64,000 bases of DNA from Xenorhabdus bovienii SS-2004 (GTDB taxonomy: Bacteria; Pseudomonadota; Gammaproteobacteria; Enterobacterales; Enterobacteriaceae). The stretch is from contig NC_013892.1 of assembly GCF_000027225.1 (NCBI RefSeq), positions 3,658,001 through 3,722,000 of the forward strand. The letters run 5' to 3'. This document shows, one piece after another, positions 1 through 8,013 of the stretch (the first letter of the stretch is position 1; each line of letters begins with the position of its first letter). The notes beneath the pieces were generated by a model. That model worked only from the letters and a program-made list of their open reading frames with translations, was not told the DNA's origin and ran no database searches. A program made the position numbers and the translations under genes.

Positions 1-191
1 AAAAAAAGGCCTGGCAAACATTGATCAATGGCATATTCAAAACGTTCTTCTTGACCACTAGTAGACCAAGATATACTTATCTTATCATAAGATAATGAAT
101 TTTTTAGTTCCACTAACTCTCGAATATCTAATTCAAATCCATTTATATTCAATAGCCTTTCCCAAGATTTATTTTGTGTTACTGAATGCAT
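1..191 (-). CDS. Unrecognised protein, N-terminal part (runs off the left edge)
   Basis: An open frame reads leftwards from an ATG at 191 for 63 codons to the window edge. It begins MHSVTQNKSWERLLN and includes ISWSTSGQEERFEYAID. A GAGG/AGGA ribosome-binding stretch lies just upstream. It starts 38 bp after the stop of the amidotransferase fragment on the same strand, so it looks like the next gene of that operon. Too little is visible to assign a family. AT-rich composition matches the neighbouring operon genes. Confidence 0.6.
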   Translation of the reverse strand, partial: MHSVTQNKSWERLLNINGFELDIRELVELKNSLSYDKISISWSTSGQEERFEYAIDQCLPGLF

Positions 192-1079
192 ATCCTATAC
201 CTCGTTACAATTCAAAAATTCATAATGAACTAAGATATGAAATCGAAATATCCTGATGCTGTATAATCTTTTCCTAGTTTTTTAAACCTTTCATCAGGTA
301 AATGATATCCATTATTTAAATATTTATTTGCAAAATGAAAAGAACTTTTATCGTTCAAACCAATACTTTCTAGCATCCTGAGCACATCTTTAGGAATTTG
401 CAGATCGACACTATTGACATAATCAATTAATATATTCTTTACACCACTGCCATCTGGCATTCTAATTTTAGGCCTGTCAATAATGTAATCCGGCAGAAAA
501 TCTCGGAACGCTTCTCTAAGTATATATTTTTCAACTCCATTATTTATCTTCAATGATTCATGAAGGCTTAATGCATAACGTACCACTTGATTATTCATAA
601 AGGGTACTCTTGCTTCTACAGAGTTACGCATACTAGCGCGATCAACACGCTGCAAATCAGTACGATGTAAATTATTTAATCTATAAAGTGAAAGCTCATC
701 AATAGAAGGATATGTTTTGAATAAATCATAGCCGCAAAAAATCTCGTCACTTCCTTCTCCACATAAAGCCACTTTGAAACCAAGCTTATTAGCAATAAAA
801 TAACCAAAATTTGCTATAATAGAGTCTACTGAGTCTATTTTTTCGAAGAATTCTCCATAATATACTGCGCTATCAATATCATCAATTAAATCTTGCTCTG
901 TAAATGTATATATTATCTGACGTATTTTATTTTCTTCACAAAATTTCTTTGATATTTTGATATCGTCTGAACCAGGTAAACCAAACGAAATTGCAGTAAC
1001 ATTAGAATGATATTTATTTGCTAAAGCCAATACAATAGCACTGTCTATTCGGTCATGTATTAAATGATTAGATTAGGTA

Positions 1080-1571
1080 TTAAAAATAATGTTCACGTTC
1101 AATAAAGGTTCCTATCACTTTATCGTGCATTTCTTCCGATTTTGAATACCCAATGGTTTTTCTATTCAGCCTTTTGATTCGGGTACGATGCGTTAAATTC
1201 GTTCTCTCTATACGCTGAGTAAACGCCTTTCCAGTCAAGTGCTCTTCCTCGGGAAGTGGGTCATAAACAACATAGTCATCCGTGCAGTAAAACCGAATAG
1301 TAAAGGAAGATAAGAGGGTAAGCAGCTTGTCTAACGTTTTTCGACTGCGATCGCCAAAAACATGAGCCACTATTCGCTTCAGGCGGGGTTCCCAAGCATA
1401 CCAAAGCCAGCGTTGGTTTTTCTTATTGCCGACAAACGACCATTGCTCGTCGATTTCACAGACAATCTGGATGCCACATTCCGCAAGGGGAAGTGTCGTT
1501 ACGTTTCGGGGTCTGAGGTTTTTAATGTTTTCATGACGGTGGCGGTGGCGACTTTCAGGATCCGAGCGGTG
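1080..1571 (-). CDS. insB: IS1-family InsB transposase domain (made by -1 frameshift from insA)
   Basis: InsB lies in the -1 frame relative to insA and lacks a convincing start of its own, as in other IS1 elements. Translated from the overlap it contains EIDEQWSFVGNKKNQ and YCTDDY (the two DDE aspartates). It ends RIERTNLTHRTRIKRL…HDKVIGTFIEREHYF. The first in-frame ATG is at 1370, inside the catalytic domain. The upstream boundary given is the start of the open -1 frame and is approximate. Confidence 0.8.
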   Translation of the reverse strand, partial: HRSDPESRHRHRHENIKNLRPRNVTTLPLAECGIQIVCEIDEQWSFVGNKKNQRWLWYAWEPRLKRIVAHVFGDRSRKTLDKLLTLLSSFTIRFYCTDDYVVYDPLPEEEHLTGKAFTQRIERTNLTHRTRIKRLNRKTIGYSKSEEMHDKVIGTFIEREHYF

Positions 1572-1774
1572 TCACGAATTCCCCCGTTATTCATCGCGAT
1601 ATCGATAATCTGTTCTTTAACGCCGGGTTTGCAGGCCTGATAGGTATACGCCAACTGAAAGACCTTACAGCAGCTATAACAGCGATAACGAGGATGTCCG
1701 CCATTTCCTTTCCCATGTCCTTTGACCTGTTCTGATTTGTGGCAATAACGGCAATAGACATCAACTTTGGCCAT
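1499..1774 (-). CDS. insA: IS1-family InsA regulator/DNA-binding protein
   Basis: A 91-residue InsA. An N-terminal zinc-ribbon-like region (CRYCHKSE, then CYSCCK) is followed by a helix-turn-helix (GIRDTARILKVATATV). InsA binds the element ends and represses. The transposase proper is made as an InsAB fusion by -1 frameshifting at an A-rich stretch near the 3' end of insA. It differs from copy B at about one residue (QIIDIAM versus QIVDIAM). Confidence 0.9.
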   Translation of the reverse strand: MAKVDVYCRYCHKSEQVKGHGKGNGGHPRYRCYSCCKVFQLAYTYQACKPGVKEQIIDIAMNNGGIRDTARILKVATATVMKTLKTSDPET

Positions 1775-2579
1775 ACTTCATCCTTAAAAAGCCGGAAGCA
1801 TATCACAGCAACTAACCATTTAATACATGACCGTCTATTCCACCACTAAACATAACAGCAACCGGCAGATCAGTGTCAACTTGAGACTCAACCGCCTCTT
1901 CCATCAACTTACGAACTTTTTGTTTTGCTACAAGATAACAATCCTTGCTTTTTTCTATAGATTTATCATAACGAGTATACTTATAAAGCTCATTACCATC
2001 ATAAAGACTCCCAGGCTCAAGTGTCTTAACTTCAACATCAAGTGCTAGAAAAGATTTCATTTCTGATGCCACATACCAAACATCATTCTTTTTTGCATAG
2101 TAAAGAGGCTTTATACCCACGTGATCTCTACCGATCAGAAACTTTGATTTTCTATTATCATATATGACAAATGCAAACATTCCATCTAGCATATTTACAA
2201 ATTCTAAATCATATTCAATATATGCCTTTAATATTACCTCTGCATCTCCATATCCTTTAAATTCGTGTCCTCTTTTGATAAGTTTTTCACGTATTTTTTT
2301 ATAATTGAATATTTGCCCATTAAGGATGACATGAATATCCCTTTCTTCGTCTGAAACAGGTTGAGTCGCGGTTTCTCTCTCGACAATTGCCAAGCGATTT
2401 GTGGCAAGCCCAACGTATTCTTTAACTAGGTGTTCATTAAAACGAGATAAATCTCCTCGATGTTTAATCCTTTCTATCATAGAGAAAAGCTTATTATCCA
2501 ATTGTTCAATTAAAATTTTTTTTGTCGTAAAAATTGCTGCAATTCCACACATAAAATATTTTCCTTTACTAAAATAGGA

Positions 2580-3917
2580 TTATTTTAATTTAGCCAGCTC
2601 ATTAACTTTCGCACCTAAGGAACGAATTTCAGAAAAATATTCTGGGTAAGTTTGCCCTACATGAAATGGTTCTTTTATAATAACAGGCTCACTACAATGA
2701 AGGCCTATTGTTGTGAGCCCCATAATAAGTCCATGATCGTAATGTCCATCTAGAACCACCCTGCCTTTATATCCTTTGGGGTTCCCATGGATAATGAGTT
2801 GATCATGTTTTTCATCTGATTTTACCCCTAGTTTTGATAATTCTTTTCTAAAATCAGATATCCGATCAGACTCTTTATAACGGATATGCTCAATGTTATA
2901 AAAAATACTTGTACCAGAGGCTAATGAAGCTCTAGCCGCTAATGCGGGAACTGCATCAGGGGCCAAAGAACCGTCAAAATCTAAAGGACGAATTTCTGTA
3001 CTCCCTCTAATTATTATCGTTTCATTCCCAATAAATTCGATATTAGTCCCTGTATCGATTAGATATTGAATCACAGCACCATTTCCCAGTTCTTCTTCGA
3101 AGAAACCATTCAATTGAACTTCTGATTCTAGGGAGCCACAAAGCGCAAGGATTGCAGCAGTGCTAGCTGGATCAGAACCTACTGTAAAATCACTTGCCTG
3201 CAATCGACATCGACCATGTACAAAAAATTCACGAAAATCACTATCATATTCGATTCTAATACCCGCTTTCTTAAGGTTATTAATTGTTGTGTGAACCATT
3301 GATGGAGCTGTTATTTTGTCGACTACCTTTATAGTTAAGTCATTATCCATCACTGCTCCAAGATATAGTAATCCACTTAAAAATTGTGAGCTTTTTCTAC
3401 AAGATACCTCTGTATAATCATTTAACTTTCTATCAGACTTAATCCTGATAGGAAGTCGATGCTCTTCTCCCAATGCTCTACATTGAACATTCAACATACA
3501 TAGCGCATTAACCATTTCTGTTTGAGAACGAAATCCAAGAGAGGCGTGATAATCGGTTATAAATTTTGTCTCTGGTAAGAAACCCGCTACCCCCATCAAC
3601 AACCTCAATACTACCCCTGAGTTACCTGGATTGAACTCTAAAGGCTGGTTGATAGAACTCACGTCAATTCCATTTACTATCAAATTACCTTTATCTTCTT
3701 TGAAAACAGCCCCCAATCGCTCACAATTAGATTTCATCGCTATGGTATTAAAACCAGTAGCAATATTTCTGATAATACTTTTTCCAGAAGTAATGGAAGA
3801 AGTTAGAAGGGCTCGAGTTGAGGAACTTTTAGAAGCTGGTAAGTTAAGTGTACCCTGTAAACGTTTCGAATAAATCACCTCAACAAATTTACTATCTTTA
3901 TCAATTCTTTTAGACAT
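2580..3917 (-). CDS. EPSP-synthase-like enolpyruvyl transferase, paralogue 1
   Basis: 445 residues, the usual EPSP-synthase length, with the two-domain family signature. Visible motifs in order: PASKSSSTRALL (phosphate/PEP-binding Lys, Ser, Arg), NPGNSGVVLRLLMG, SSQFLSGLL, GSDPASTAAI, APDAVPAL (catalytic Asp) and RYKESDRI (catalytic Glu). It departs from true AroA in the C-terminal part: DHGLIMG replaces the DHR motif, and VGQTYPEYF replaces the V-x-K-S/T-F-P lysine motif. EPSP synthase transfers enolpyruvate from PEP to shikimate 3-phosphate. This protein may use another acceptor. It ends 27 bp before the amidotransferase start and follows paralogue 2 by 26 bp, so all are one operon. The DNA is more AT-rich than the core genes, suggesting acquisition. 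Confidence 0.8.
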   Translation of the reverse strand: MSKRIDKDSKFVEVIYSKRLQGTLNLPASKSSSTRALLTSSITSGKSIIRNIATGFNTIAMKSNCERLGAVFKEDKGNLIVNGIDVSSINQPLEFNPGNSGVVLRLLMGVAGFLPETKFITDYHASLGFRSQTEMVNALCMLNVQCRALGEEHRLPIRIKSDRKLNDYTEVSCRKSSQFLSGLLYLGAVMDNDLTIKVVDKITAPSMVHTTINNLKKAGIRIEYDSDFREFFVHGRCRLQASDFTVGSDPASTAAILALCGSLESEVQLNGFFEEELGNGAVIQYLIDTGTNIEFIGNETIIIRGSTEIRPLDFDGSLAPDAVPALAARASLASGTSIFYNIEHIRYKESDRISDFRKELSKLGVKSDEKHDQLIIHGNPKGYKGRVVLDGHYDHGLIMGLTTIGLHCSEPVIIKEPFHVGQTYPEYFSEIRSLGAKVNELAKLK

Positions 3918-3943
3918 TTTTCACCCTCAAAGAAATAATTTAA

Positions 3944-5245
3944 CTATTTAATATGAACGCCTAAATTCCTCAGCGTATCGATATAATCGGGAAATCCATC
4001 ATTTAATTTATCTATATCGTATATTATGGATTCTTTCTCAGCACCGAGCGATGCTATGAGATTAGCAGCACAAATTCTATGGTCACCGTAACTTTTAAGT
4101 TCAACTCCTCCATTCAACGGTCCTTTTCCTTCAATATATATTGACTCAAACATTCCTACTCTATCGAATATTAGAACACTACTCCCTCCCATTGTTCTTA
4201 TATTTTCATTAACAATAAATGCTCGTTGACTTTTATGATTATTTATTCCCCTTACCCCACTAAAAATTTTTTTTCCTTTCAAATTAGATGAAGCAGCAAT
4301 TATGTTTACGGCTACGGAAGGAAGCTCTTTCAATGAAAATTCACCATCCCATAACCTAATCGACTGCCTGAATATTCTCAAATTATTCCAATTTGAATCA
4401 TACTTAATAATTAGACCTATACTTTGATAAAATTTAAATAAATCACGTTCATTTATTGTGTCATTAAAATAATAATTTCTTATCAATACATCACTAACAC
4501 CTTTTGAGCTTAATATAGAAGATGCTATATAGCTTAATGATGTGAAATCAGAGGGTATTTTTATTTCAATATCTTTAGGTATATATTTAGTTACTTTAAA
4601 GTGCTTTTGTTCATATGTAACCATGCTCCCTAGAAGGGACATTGATTTTATCGTCATATCAATATAGCCCATTTTACTGCCGTCCATAACTATAGGGACT
4701 ATATTTTGTTTGCTGAAAGGAGTGACAAATAGAGCAAACGTAATGAACTGAGTGCTATTCAAAACAGTCAATGGTTTTTTTATATTAGTTTCACTCTTAG
4801 TGATTATAATCTTTTCATTTTCAATACGTTCAATATGAATATCTAAATAATTACAGAAATCTTCGTCAAACACACTCTCTCTATTAAATAAAGATTCATT
4901 GCATTTTATTACTATTTTTTCATTATCAATGAGAGATGCTAAAGCTGCGCACATTCTGAATAACATACCTGAACCACCTGCATATATCTCCCCATTATAC
5001 GATAAATTTCTACCTACACCACGAAGTAACAGTGTTGTTCCATCTTTATGCAATATTTCTAGACCAAATTTTTTCAGAGCATTAATTTGATTTTCAGTTT
5101 CTACATTCCAAGATATATTAACAATTTTCGTTGTATTTTCATTCAGTAAAGCTAGTAATAATGCACGCTGAATATGAGGTTTAGATGATGGTATAAAAAC
5201 TTCACCAGTCAGGCCAAAACTCGGAAAAACAGTAACCTTGCTCAT
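3944..5245 (-). CDS. EPSP-synthase-like protein, paralogue 2, catalytic acids replaced
   Basis: 433 residues with the enolpyruvyl-transferase fold pattern: PSSKPHIQRALLLAL near the N-terminus, YAGGSGMLFRM, LNSTQFITFALF, PSDFTSLSYIASSI and SYGDHRICAANLIAS. The two acidic residues central to EPSP synthase appear lost. The PDAxP motif reads KELPSVAVN, and the KESDR motif reads HKSQR. DHRI is kept, and the C-terminal lysine motif reads NDGFPDYID. Paralogue 1 has kept the acids but lost DHR, so the two have diverged in complementary ways. It could be a partner subunit, an enzyme with different chemistry, or decaying. It is the first gene of the minus-strand operon. Confidence 0.72.
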   Translation of the reverse strand: MSKVTVFPSFGLTGEVFIPSSKPHIQRALLLALLNENTTKIVNISWNVETENQINALKKFGLEILHKDGTTLLLRGVGRNLSYNGEIYAGGSGMLFRMCAALASLIDNEKIVIKCNESLFNRESVFDEDFCNYLDIHIERIENEKIIITKSETNIKKPLTVLNSTQFITFALFVTPFSKQNIVPIVMDGSKMGYIDMTIKSMSLLGSMVTYEQKHFKVTKYIPKDIEIKIPSDFTSLSYIASSILSSKGVSDVLIRNYYFNDTINERDLFKFYQSIGLIIKYDSNWNNLRIFRQSIRLWDGEFSLKELPSVAVNIIAASSNLKGKKIFSGVRGINNHKSQRAFIVNENIRTMGGSSVLIFDRVGMFESIYIEGKGPLNGGVELKSYGDHRICAANLIASLGAEKESIIYDIDKLNDGFPDYIDTLRNLGVHIK

Positions 5246-5699
5246 ATTTTCCCTTTTTCCTAAATGAAAGTTTTAAATATTTATATAATCACGGATCATC
5301 ACTTTATAACACGCCATGGCTCTTTAAATAATTAATATAAATTTACAATCATGGCGAATAATCCTACATTGAACAATTTATAAAATATATTTAACACGAA
5401 TTATTAAGTATGTTTATCCTTAAGATAAATAGCTTAGAGTTCACAACTCTTATGACTATACAGTCACAAATTCATTTCTTACCAATCCAAAGTAATTAAT
5501 AAAGTAAGCTAATTATATTCTTTCTAAAATACTATCCAATGATTTTACTTTCCTGAATTTTCCTCATAAAGACGATAAGCGGCTGGAAAAAAATTCCAAA
5601 CTCATCATTGTGAACCCGTATTAAGAGCTTTGTATATCGACAATCCTTCCAGAGATCAAAGAATTTGCTAGCTTTACCAAAAGAAACTGATGTCATTGA
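5246..5699. other. AT-rich intergenic region upstream of the enolpyruvyl-transferase operon
   Basis: About 450 bp without a supportable gene. It lies upstream of the minus-strand operon and should hold its promoter. I see no promoter strong enough to mark. The right-hand part (from about 5560) may be eroded IS256-family DNA continuing into the recognisable remnant at 5700. Confidence 0.5.
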
Positions 5700-5930
5700 A
5701 TCCCTGAACAGTATCCGTCATGCCATCAAGAAACGTCAAAGCTTCCCATCAGATGATTCAGTGAAAAAAGGTAGTTTGGCTGACCATTCAGGGCGCATCC
5801 AAAAAAGTAGACAATACTGCTCAGTGGCTGGCGTATAACGATGATCCGCTTCATGATGGAATTCGGTGACAGCCTAAACGGCCACTTTTAAATGAGATGG
5901 AGATTCCACAAAATCGTAAATAGGGTCTCA
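5700..5930 (+). pseudogene. IS256-family transposase remnant (C-terminal fragment and element end)
   Basis: Translated piecewise in shifting frames the + strand gives IESLNSIRHAIKKR, FPSDDSVKK, VVWLTIQGASKK and RFMMEFGDSLNGHF followed by a stop at 5889–5891. These match the conserved C-terminus of IS256-family (mutator-type) transposases. At least two frameshifts separate the blocks, so it is dead. The sequence after the stop, ending agggtctc near 5930, looks like the terminal inverted repeat of such an element. The 5' part is missing. Confidence 0.72.
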
Positions 5931-5989
5931 AAATCCCCTAATATTCTGTTTAACTCCCCTCCAATATTCGGTAATGACTCCAAAGGGTT

Positions 5990-6394
5990 GTAATGATGTT
6001 TTTCAATATATGCGCCAATGAGTTTTTCGTGGATTTCCATCGAACGTGAGTAACAAATGGTTCTTCTTCTCGCCAACCTCTTGATATGAATTCGCAGGTT
6101 GAGATTATGCCGCTCTATACGTTGGGTAAAAATTTTGCCTACCAGATATTTTTCCGGCATAACTTCCCCAGTTATCGGTCGTGATGAAACGAATATTAAA
6201 AGGCGCCAATAAGTTGAGCAATTTTCGGCAGGTTGCATCTGTTCGGGGGTCAAAGACATGGGCGATGATTTTTTTCCTTTTAGTATCAAAATTATACCAA
6301 AGCCAATGACGTTGTTTTTTATTGCCTATCAAAGACCACTGCTCATCCAATTCACAGATAAGTGTGATATCGTCATAAGCGATCTGTCACGATG
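5990..6394 (-). pseudogene. insB: IS1-family InsB, frameshifted
   Basis: The first half (MDEQWSLIGNKKQRHWLWYN to RFITTDNWGSYAG) and second half (EKYLVGKIFTQRIERHNLN to EKHHY) of InsB lie in different frames. An indel lies near 6160–6180. The second frame then reads through the element end without its own stop. The DDE domain is therefore broken. Confidence 0.8.
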
Positions 6395-6673
6395 TTACTT
6401 GTTTTGGCGAGAGTTTTTTAATGTCCGCATCACCGTATTGATACCGAGACCTAATATACGGCCTGTGTCTCTCACGCCAGAGCCATTCATTGCCATATCC
6501 ACAATTTTTTCTTTCATACCCGGTTTATGGCCGTTGTAACGATAGTTGAGTTGAAAGGTTCTTTGGCAACCTTTGCAATAGTAGCGAGGGAAGCCAGCCT
6601 TACCTGTTCCGTGTTTGCGTACAGGTTCTGCTTGGTCGCAATATCGACAAGTCACTTCTATCGTAACAGTCAT
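6395..6673 (-). CDS. insA: IS1-family InsA protein
   Basis: 92 residues with the InsA layout: CRYCDQAE and CKGCQRTF zinc-ribbon cysteines, then GSGVRDTGRILGLGINTV as helix-turn-helix. It belongs to a different IS1 subtype from the 782-bp copies. It is open, but its partner insB is frameshifted, so the element is probably not self-mobile. Confidence 0.85.
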   Translation of the reverse strand: MTVTIEVTCRYCDQAEPVRKHGTGKAGFPRYYCKGCQRTFQLNYRYNGHKPGMKEKIVDMAMNGSGVRDTGRILGLGINTVMRTLKNSRQNK

Positions 6674-7060
6674 GATGATATCCCATTAAAAAGTACAAGA
6701 ATATCAAATTAACGCTTTGAAGTCATGACCAGAATATCTGGGTTAGATTGGCTGACATTGGCAAGCCTAAGAGATTCAGAAAATATGATTATGAGTTATG
6801 ATGAGGTTGATGATGAATTAGCTGGTATTACAATGTGGGGAAAATTGACAGAATGGTTTGAAAAATCAGGGTATGAAAAAGTATTTAGTAATGTCGGCTT
6901 ATCCCATTCTAATATAGATGACATAGTAACTCTTAGTGATTACTATAACAAAGGATATCATGTTGTTACTTTGATTTCAGCAGGAATGTTATCAGATTTT
7001 GGGGTCATGTATTAAATGGTTAGTTGCTGTGATATGCTTCCGGCTTTTTAAGGATGAAGT

Positions 7061-7336
7061 ATGGCCAAAGTTGATGTCTATTGCCGTTATTGCCACAAAT
7101 CAGAACAGGTCAAAGGACATGGGAAAGGAAATGGCGGACATCCTCGTTATCGCTGTTATAGCTGCTGTAAGGTCTTTCAGTTGGCGTATACCTATCAGGC
7201 CTGCAAACCCGGCGTTAAAGAACAGATTGTCGATATCGCGATGAATAACGGGGGAATTCGTGACACCGCTCGGATCCTGAAAGTCGCCACCGCCACCGTC
7301 ATGAAAACATTAAAAACCTCAGACCCCGAAACGTAA
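7061..7336 (+). CDS. insA: IS1-family InsA
   Basis: 91 residues, the same protein as in copy A apart from one Ile/Val difference. It has a zinc-ribbon CRYC/CYSCC pair and a helix-turn-helix. A stretch ttaaaaac at 7310–7317 lies where both the insA frame and the -1 frame are open. It is the likely slippage site for making InsAB. Confidence 0.9.
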   Translation: MAKVDVYCRYCHKSEQVKGHGKGNGGHPRYRCYSCCKVFQLAYTYQACKPGVKEQIVDIAMNNGGIRDTARILKVATATVMKTLKTSDPET

Positions 7337-7755
7337 CGACACTTCCCCTTGCGGAATGTGGCATCCAGATTGTCTGTGAAATCGACGAGCAATGGTCGTT
7401 TGTCGGCAATAAGAAAAACCAACGCTGGCTTTGGTATGCTTGGGAACCCCGCCTGAAGCGAATAGTGGCTCATGTTTTTGGCGATCGCAGTCGAAAAACG
7501 TTAGACAAGCTGCTTACCCTCTTATCTTCCTTTACTATTCGGTTTTACTGCACGGATGACTATGTTGTTTACGACCCACTTCCCGAGGAAGAGCACTTGA
7601 CTGGAAAGGCGTTTACTCAGCGTATAGAGAGAACGAATTTAACGCATCGTACCCGAATCAAAAGGCTGAATAGAAAAACCATTGGGTATTCAAAATCGGA
7701 AGAAATGCACGATAAAGTGATAGGAACCTTTATTGAACGTGAACATTATTTTTAA
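7264..7755 (+). CDS. insB: IS1-family InsB transposase domain (-1 frame)
   Basis: The -1 frame relative to insA is open from 7264 and ends at 7755. It contains EIDEQWSFVGNKKNQ, YCTDDY and RIERTNLTHRTRIKRL, the DDE transposase core of IS1. The first ATG (7465) is inside the domain. Expression therefore depends on frameshifting, as in IS1. Confidence 0.82.
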   Translation, partial: HRSDPESRHRHRHENIKNLRPRNVTTLPLAECGIQIVCEIDEQWSFVGNKKNQRWLWYAWEPRLKRIVAHVFGDRSRKTLDKLLTLLSSFTIRFYCTDDYVVYDPLPEEEHLTGKAFTQRIERTNLTHRTRIKRLNRKTIGYSKSEEMHDKVIGTFIEREHYF

Positions 7756-8013
7756 TACCTAATCTAATCATTTAATACATGACCGATTTTGGTGACATAG
7801 AAACATCAGGAAAAAATCATTGGATAGTTTGGGAAGGAGTAGTAGAAAACTATGAGAAAGAAAATATCACAAATAATTCAGATCTGAATCAATATGTAAA
7901 TTTAAATCTGTTTTCATGGGGTAAAGTGGAACATCAAATTAAAATAAACAAATCATTAGATTATGTACTCAACCATATTTTTGGAGGGTTGGTTTTTAAC
8001 CCAATGAAATAAC

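What the first reader, a model, noticed from the sequence alone, without database searches (positions are those of the whole stretch)
1..5245. Unusual operon: two divergent EPSP-synthase paralogues with an asparagine-synthetase-like amidotransferase
Four consecutive minus-strand genes with 26–38 bp spacing (paralogue 2, paralogue 1, amidotransferase, unknown gene) form an AT-rich accessory operon. Seen: family motifs and spacing. Known: EPSP synthase and MurA are the usual enolpyruvyl transferases, and class II amidotransferases make amides. Inference: enolpyruvyl- or carboxyvinyl-type chemistry followed by amidation in a specialised metabolite pathway continuing left of the window. I cannot match it to a known product.
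Basis: partly seen in the sequence, partly recalled or inferred. Interest (0 to 1): 0.75.

Follow-up and report, generated by a model that had tools for sequence, protein, structure and literature searches.

The report
Repurposed shikimate-enzyme pair in biosynthetic operon
An insect-associated bacterium carries a broken copy of a gene cluster, found intact in unrelated bacteria, in which two relatives of the glyphosate target enzyme have lost parts of their normal active site and sit beside an amide-forming enzyme, most likely to make an unknown small molecule.

Summary
Window 1-5245 (minus strand) has two EPSP-synthase homologues, c0 (3944-5245) and c1 (2580-3917), then an asnB-type gene cut by an IS (1051-1832), then the start of an NRPS gene (A-PCP-TE) that runs off the window. 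The ordinary aroA lies elsewhere in the genome.

The order c0-c1-asnB is kept in 15 of 16 non-redundant loci of other genomes: Xenorhabdus, Photorhabdus, Rahnella, Burkholderia and a Streptomyces plasmid. Partners vary: A-PCP-TE, or RidA + ATP-grasp ligase + EamA, or both.

Neither homologue has a normal EPSP-synthase active site. c1 keeps the shikimate-3-phosphate side and the acid/base pair but lost R386 and K411. c0 lost D313, E341 and K411 but keeps R344 and R386. 16 of 16 ordinary AroA controls keep all of these. Both genes are under purifying selection.

Best reading: the core of an uncharacterised specialised-metabolite pathway. "Specialised" is supported; "enolpyruvyl transfer" is not. 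The product is unknown. In this strain the operon is damaged (IS in asnB, NRPS in two frames), and c0-c1 were copied to a second locus as a 6,734-bp IS-flanked unit.

The parts
1833..2552 (-). 5' part of the asnB-type amidotransferase gene (glutaminase domain and start of synthetase domain), interrupted at 1832/1833; the ORF reads on to 1812 inside the IS
230..1050 (-). 3' part of the same asnB-type gene; ORF 230-1030
1..191 (-). start of the NRPS gene (adenylation domain); ORF continues to C1:3656332; a second ORF with PCP-TE at C1:3655391-3656395
1051..1832 (.). 782-bp IS copy (left) inside asnB, flanked by 8-bp repeats at 1043-1050 and 1833-1840
7003..7784 (.). 782-bp IS copy (right), inverted relative to the left one, flanked by its own 8-bp repeat
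1051..7784 (.). 6,734-bp IS-flanked unit carrying c0, c1 and the asnB 5' part; identical copy at C1:1718773-1725506, flanked there by one 8-bp repeat
5888..6673 (-). ORFs of another IS-like element upstream of c0 (type judged by eye from similarity of its ORFs to those of the 782-bp IS; boundaries not determined)

Best explanation
The genes are the conserved core (c0, c1, asnB) of an uncharacterised specialised-metabolite pathway. Shown: c0 and c1 have the EPSP-synthase fold (models and profiles), are each under purifying selection, are kept together in order with an asnB-type gene across several genera and two phyla, and neither has a normal EPSP-synthase active site. Inferred: c1 still holds a shikimate-3-phosphate-like acceptor and does acid/base chemistry on it with a partner less anionic than PEP. 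c0, which keeps the two arginines that hold a carboxylate but has lost both acid/base residues, does a different second step. The amidotransferase uses glutamine to turn a carboxylate (not aspartate) into an amide. The resulting amino-acid-like unit is then loaded on an A-PCP-TE protein, or joined to an amino acid by an ATP-grasp ligase, and exported by MFS or EamA. In this strain the path is interrupted by the IS in asnB and by a frame change in the NRPS gene; c0 and c1 are intact and present twice because an IS-flanked unit was copied from here to a second locus.
For: Order and strand c0-c1-asnB in 15 of 16 non-redundant loci of other genomes. Partners: A-PCP-TE, LysR, MFS in X. bovienii T228 and Rahnella; RidA, ATP-grasp, EamA in 12 of the 15. 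c1 residues: G or A at 386 and Q at 411 in 14 of 14 rows; c0: P23, G94, S313, K341 in 15 of 15 rows and H340 in 14 of 15 (two rows of each set are this genome's identical copies). 16 of 16 AroA controls from related genomes keep D313, K340, E341, R344, R386, K411. c1 with its relatives is one side of a branch (24 rows, 100/99), c0 with seven relatives and P0023 another (19 rows, 100/99). AlphaFold pLDDT 91.1 and 92.4, best-ranked hits EPSP synthases. dN/dS 0.13-0.15 (c0), 0.09-0.10 (c1), 0.13 (asnB, T228 against X. khoisanae). Patchy presence of c0: 3 of 30 Xenorhabdus, 7 of 12 Photorhabdus, 4 of 65 Burkholderia genomes. Transposon geometry.
Against: c1 scores 297.5 bits, just above the NCBI cut-off (287.25) for true AroA, and keeps D313 and E341, so EPSP-synthase activity is not excluded. 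Loss of K411 alone is not diagnostic: 6 of 29 R386-bearing relatives have V or T there. The AroA controls come from one bacterial family only. R386 is also replaced in five relatives with a different set of letters that I do not count as c1 (P0151, P0157, P0159, P0161, P0162), so the change is a little wider than the pathway. No substrate or product is known. The NRPS was not matched in the fetched flanks of the 7 Photorhabdus loci and of three Burkholderia loci, and the ATP-grasp set not in X. bovienii T228 or within the Streptomyces stretch, so no downstream step is universal. Roles of single residues are recalled from work on E. coli AroA, not tested. Hafnia has c1 and a c0 in two pieces, with no asnB in the last 1.4 kb of its contig.
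Confidence: 0.6

Rival explanations
1. c0 and c1 are target-resistant AroA copies that protect the producer from an EPSP-synthase inhibitor made by the cluster.
For: In the Streptomyces microflavus plasmid a third aroA lies at the end of the cluster. It keeps D313, E341, R344, R386 and K411 but has S94 and H340, and could be a resistance copy.
Against: c0 and c1 themselves lack catalytic or PEP-binding residues and come as a pair in 16 of 16 loci (one c0 broken). No further ordinary aroA was matched in the fetched flanks of the proteobacterial loci (with the Streptomyces third AroA among the queries).
Confidence: 0.1
2. c1 is still a PEP-dependent carboxyvinyl transferase with a changed acceptor (as MurA is), and c0 is an inactive helper subunit of c1.
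For: c1 keeps K22, R124, D313, E341, R344; c0 is the more diverged and lacks acid/base residues.
Against: R386 and K411 are lost in 14 of 14 c1 rows. A c0-type active site also occurs in a separate Xenorhabdus operon in which no c1 or asnB was matched, which argues that this type works by itself.
Confidence: 0.2
3. The cluster makes a surface sugar: enolpyruvyl ether plus amidated uronic acid, as in some O-antigen loci.
For: asnB-type amidotransferases amidate uronic acids in some O-antigen clusters (recalled); AT-rich accessory DNA.
Against: The recurring partners are NRPS, ATP-grasp, RidA, EamA, LysR and MFS. A glycosyl transferase is annotated only on the other strand beyond the Streptomyces cluster.
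Confidence: 0.03
4. In this strain the operon is only decaying mobile cargo without function.
For: IS in asnB, NRPS in two frames, c0-c1 duplicated as an IS-flanked unit.
Against: c0 and c1 remain intact and constrained, and the gene set is intact in other species. True at most for this strain.
Confidence: 0.35

Closest known systems
EPSP synthase (AroA, PF00275, TIGR01356)
   Same: Fold, length, shikimate-3-phosphate-side residues of c1 (K22, S23, R27, S169, S170, Q171, K340)
   Different: c1 lost R386 and K411, c0 lost D313, E341, K411; genes sit in an NRPS operon; a separate ordinary aroA exists
AroA homologues recruited in natural-product clusters (EvoMining; arsenolipid pathway of Streptomyces)
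   Same: Asparagine synthase and AroA are named among the most expanded enzyme families in the earlier EvoMining analyses that led to the arsenolipid enzymes (PMC6939163, passages seen)
   Different: Here two paralogues occur together with asnB; no arsenic gene is named in the annotated Streptomyces stretches; the arsenolipid paper itself was not held
Asparagine synthetase B (1CT9)
   Same: Glutaminase domain with Cys after the start Met, SGG(I/L)DS and GEGSDE motifs; best solved-structure hit
   Different: Shorter C-terminus; the E. coli TTIRAS stretch is replaced by one without arginine; below the NF006949 cut-off (352 against 499 bits) though above TIGR01536 (337 against 267)
Indigoidine-type single-module NRPS (A-Ox-PCP-TE; name and architecture recalled)
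   Same: The Streptomyces cluster's 1287-aa NRPS aligns over 97% of its length, at 38-39% identity, with stretches of S. clavuligerus and S. lavendulae plasmids
   Different: The X. bovienii T228 protein is A-PCP-TE, 933 aa, without the insert; the insert of the Streptomyces protein matched no Pfam family
ATP-grasp L-amino-acid ligases (DdaF, BacD)
   Same: ATP-grasp_4 match, LAL_C2 below its cut-off, weak similarity to DdaF and BacD models
   Different: Far below the DdaF and BacD cut-offs (54.6 of 840 and 18.1 of 850 bits); not matched in X. bovienii T228

Membership tests
EPSP synthase (AroA) | EPSP-synthase fold over full length | tested here: met
   PF00275 and Foldseek hits for both
EPSP synthase (AroA) | TIGR01356 equivalog cut-off 287.25 bits | tested here: inconclusive
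   c1 297.5 (met), c0 141.3 (not met)
EPSP synthase (AroA) | PEP-binding and acid/base residues R124 R344 R386 K411 D313 E341 (roles recalled) | tested here: not met
   c1 lacks R386, K411; c0 lacks D313, E341, K411; 16 of 16 controls of one family keep all six; K411 varies in 6 of 29 wider relatives
EPSP synthase (AroA) | complements an aroA mutant | not testable with these tools
   bench test proposed
MurA | TIGR01072 cut-off 392.7 bits | tested here: not met
   44.4 and 41.4 bits
Asparagine synthetase B | class II glutaminase plus ATP-PPase domain | tested here: met
   T228 homologue, PF13537 and PF00733; here split by the IS
Asparagine synthetase B | aspartate-site arginine in the TTIRAS stretch (role recalled) | tested here: not met
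   no arginine in the aligned stretch in 6 of 6 cluster members printed, of 16 aligned; the exact column differs
Indigoidine-type synthetase | A-Ox-PCP-TE architecture | tested here: not met
   T228 protein is A-PCP-TE, 933 aa; the Streptomyces relative has a long insert between AMP-binding and its C-terminal part, not identified by any profile
IS-flanked composite transposon | two copies of one IS bounding the cargo and one target duplication around the whole unit at the new site | tested here: met

The most novel reading that the evidence does not exclude
c0 and c1 are two new catalytic types of the enolpyruvyl-transferase fold that no longer transfer enolpyruvate. With a dedicated amidotransferase they turn a shikimate-3-phosphate-type precursor into an amide-bearing amino acid warhead, possibly one that inhibits the shikimate pathway itself, which is then peptide-linked; the pathway is shared by actinobacteria and proteobacteria, among them insect symbionts.
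Probability: 0.3. Interest if true: 0.85.

Novelty: new variant of a known kind. Interest (0 to 1): 0.6.

Why it matters
EPSP synthase is the glyphosate target and one of the best-studied enzymes. A conserved pair of homologues with two different, clade-wide active-site changes would show what else this fold can do and would mark an uncharacterised family of metabolite clusters. It also warns that such genes are named '3-phosphoshikimate 1-carboxyvinyltransferase' in public records (names seen) although key residues are missing.

Tried and rejected
Rejected: housekeeping shikimate context (separate aroA); MurA-type enzyme (scores); surface-sugar locus (no such genes among the recurring partners). 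The Paenibacillus plasmid hit beside a shikimate kinase is a different type with R386 and K411 kept. The asnB relatives on S. cellulosae and Tistrella plasmids lie in other contexts. Class- and phylum-wide samples found c1 at E <= 1e-60 in no other genome (1 of 369 and 1 of 398, the one being this genome). A scan of viral contigs with c1 found no relative. Literature searches gave listings in which I saw no description of this cluster; two searches listed no paper. The main text of the Xenorhabdus/Photorhabdus BGC survey PMC9177418 has no occurrence of shikimate, carboxyvinyl, asparagine synth, ATP-grasp or indigoidine (term search; supplements not read). The paper looked at for active-site residues (PMC10305266, passages) is a docking study, so the roles of single residues rest on recall. 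Reading the A-domain specificity by eye (a Gln/Glu-like pattern) was not run as a test and is not used as evidence. In the tree three rows that I had labelled c0-like beforehand (P0199, P0200, P0201) fell outside the c0 clade, and the program warned of long branches and of unusual composition in several c0 rows.
Full report
Observation. The window lies at C1:3658001-3722000 of a 4,225,498-bp single-contig genome. The size matches Xenorhabdus bovienii SS-2004 as I recall it, and the nearest c0 protein is from X. bovienii (98%). On the minus strand are c0 (3944-5245), c1 (2580-3917), asnB in two pieces (to 2552 and from 230) and the start of an NRPS gene at 191. Gaps are 26, 27 and 38 nt. GC is 0.32-0.37 over 1-6000, against 0.39-0.50 over the rest of the window.

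Left of the window. The operon continues with an adenylation-domain ORF (C1:3656332-3658191), a PCP-TE ORF (3655391-3656395) and a formyltransferase-like gene (3653603-3655312), all on the minus strand; then come a LysR gene (plus) and an MFS gene (minus). In X. bovienii T228 (L044) the same genes read as c0, c1, a 510-aa AsnB, one 933-aa A-PCP-TE protein, the formyltransferase-like protein, LysR and MFS; the domains were typed on these T228 proteins. So in the window strain asnB is cut by the IS and the NRPS lies in two frames.

Transposon. Window 1051-7784 (6,734 bp) is 100% identical to C1:1718773-1725506. It is bounded by two inverted 782-bp copies of one IS (99.7% alike). In the window each IS copy has its own 8-bp target repeat; at the second locus one 8-bp repeat surrounds the whole unit. 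The window locus is therefore the likely donor, and c0, c1 and the asnB 5' part were copied as a composite unit next to another gene with an adenylation domain. A third, single IS copy lies at C1:1696822-1697603.

Families. c1 scores 297.5 bits against TIGR01356 (aroA; cut-off 287.25), c0 141.3. The genome has two further, stronger PF00275 matches, which by their sequence are its ordinary aroA (C1:835578-836819) and murA (C1:3712379-3713578). A database search with c0 gives 22 proteins at 45-98% identity, some of them fragments (Xenorhabdus, Photorhabdus, Burkholderia, Paraburkholderia, Hafnia and unnamed), then a drop to 24%. c1 has a wider family, with Streptomyces, Nonomuraea, Nocardia, Kitasatospora, Sphaerisporangium, Phyllobacterium and Arenibaculum at 43-49% (only the 7,992 candidates sharing most words were scored, best 120 of 125 listed).

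Neighbourhood in other genomes. One scan of genome contigs gave 13 loci; a Streptomyces microflavus plasmid and two Burkholderia-genus genomes add three. Of these 16 non-redundant loci, 15 hold c0-c1-asnB in this order and on one strand (in X. khoisanae the asnB runs off the contig, and in Streptomyces the c0 relative is about 26% identical). The exception is Hafnia, with c0 in two pieces and no asnB in the last 1.4 kb of the contig. RidA, ATP-grasp and EamA accompany the core in 12 of the 15: Rahnella, seven Photorhabdus, four Burkholderia-genus loci. A-PCP-TE is matched in T228, Rahnella and B. catarinensis, and in Streptomyces as a 1287-aa protein with a long insert between the AMP-binding match and its C-terminal part. 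The Streptomyces NRPS aligns over 97% of its length, at 38-39%, with S. clavuligerus and S. lavendulae stretches; I recall that such proteins are indigoidine synthetases. An MFS relative (51%) and a third aroA also lie in that region. Presence is patchy: c0 is in 3 of 30 Xenorhabdus, 7 of 12 Photorhabdus and 4 of 65 Burkholderia genomes.

Active sites. In E. coli AroA numbering (the motif positions of this genome's AroA fit it), all 14 c1 rows keep K22, S23, R27, N94, R124, S169, S170, Q171, D313, K340, E341, R344 and H385. They have G or A at 386, Q at 411, H at 336 and M at 200. All 15 c0 rows keep K22, R27, R124, S169, Q171, Y200 and R344, and have P23, G94, T170, S313 and K341; H340 in 14; H385, R386 and D411 in the 14 that reach there. 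Two rows of each set are this genome's identical copies. As a control, 16 of 16 ordinary AroA from genomes of the same family keep D313, K340, E341, R344, H385, R386 and K411. Against a simple reading: in the wider set, 29 relatives keep R386, but 6 of these have V or T at 411, and five relatives with a different set of letters also lack R386. Which residue does what is recalled from studies of E. coli AroA.

Tree. In a 63-row tree, c1 is one side of a branch (24 rows, 100/99). Another branch (19 rows, 100/99) holds the 11 c0 rows, seven relatives (Streptomyces, Amycolatopsis, Nocardia, Kitasatospora, Sphaerisporangium and two unnamed) and P0023. In that set 19 of 19 have P23, G94, H340, K341, R344 and R386, and none has D313 or K411. 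The tree program warned of long branches and uneven composition.

Structure and selection. AlphaFold models (pLDDT 91.1 for c0, 92.4 for c1) match solved EPSP synthases best. dN/dS is 0.15 (c0) and 0.09 (c1) against T228, and 0.13 and 0.09 against X. khoisanae, where synonymous sites are near saturation; asnB gives 0.13 between T228 and X. khoisanae. Both genes are kept by selection although the normal active site is gone.

Amidotransferase. The intact relatives have a glutaminase domain and an ATP-PPase domain. The aspartate-site stretch of E. coli AsnB (TTIRAS; role recalled) is replaced in 6 of 6 printed cluster members by one without arginine. It is therefore likely to amidate something other than aspartate. 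This is inference.

Mechanism proposed. c1: shikimate-3-phosphate-type substrate with acid/base chemistry and a partner that carries less negative charge than PEP. c0: a different step on a carboxylate-bearing intermediate without the usual acid/base pair. AsnB: amide formation. Then loading on A-PCP-TE, or ligation by ATP-grasp, and export. Only the gene set, fold, residue changes and selection are shown; the chemistry is inferred and the product unknown.

Known or new. PMC6939163 (passages seen) says that the most expanded families in earlier EvoMining work were asparagine synthase, a DAHP aldolase and AroA, which led to arsenolipid enzymes. I saw no description of this pair in the searches listed under Tried and rejected; the library lacks most subscription papers.

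A second operon. Five of 30 Xenorhabdus genomes carry another EPSP-synthase homologue related to the c0 type. In three (L056, L077, L078) it is followed by PhyH, a ThDP enzyme, an MFS and an SDR gene; in L078 the homologue itself lies in two frames and its letters were not read. Two more (L075, L076) are seen only up to PhyH because the loci are short. The c0-type letters were read in L056, L070/L077, L075 and, for the part present, L076. No c1 or asnB was matched beside it in those loci. The c0 type thus occurs without c1.

Noticed in passing
L056 1979-7956; L077 6756-12756; L078 7369-13335; L075; L076: A separate Xenorhabdus operon: EPSP-synthase homologue with c0-type active-site letters, PhyH dioxygenase, ThDP enzyme, MFS, SDR. 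The L056 homologue passes the TIGR01356 cut-off (290.3 bits) although D313, E341 and K411 are missing.
   Followed up: partly
window 1051-7784 and C1:1718773-1725506: 6,734-bp IS-flanked composite unit, identical in both places, with target repeats pointing to the window as donor.
   Followed up: yes
C1:1714952-1718362 (L010 8952-12362): The second copy of c0-c1 landed beside another gene with an adenylation domain (1136 aa), followed by ORFs that look like GMC oxidoreductase, thioesterase and acyl-CoA dehydrogenase (judged by eye).
   Followed up: no
L047 22894-24216: Third aroA at the end of the Streptomyces microflavus cluster, 366 bits against TIGR01356, with S94 and H340 but R386 and K411 kept; supply of EPSP or self-resistance are both possible.
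   Followed up: no
L048 14427-16305: Paenibacillus plasmid with a shikimate kinase gene next to a c1-related AroA (36%) that keeps R386 and K411 but has N at 23 and V at 200.
   Followed up: no
C1:1698946-1699464: A further asnB-like stretch with internal stops about 1.3 kb from the third IS copy.
   Followed up: no
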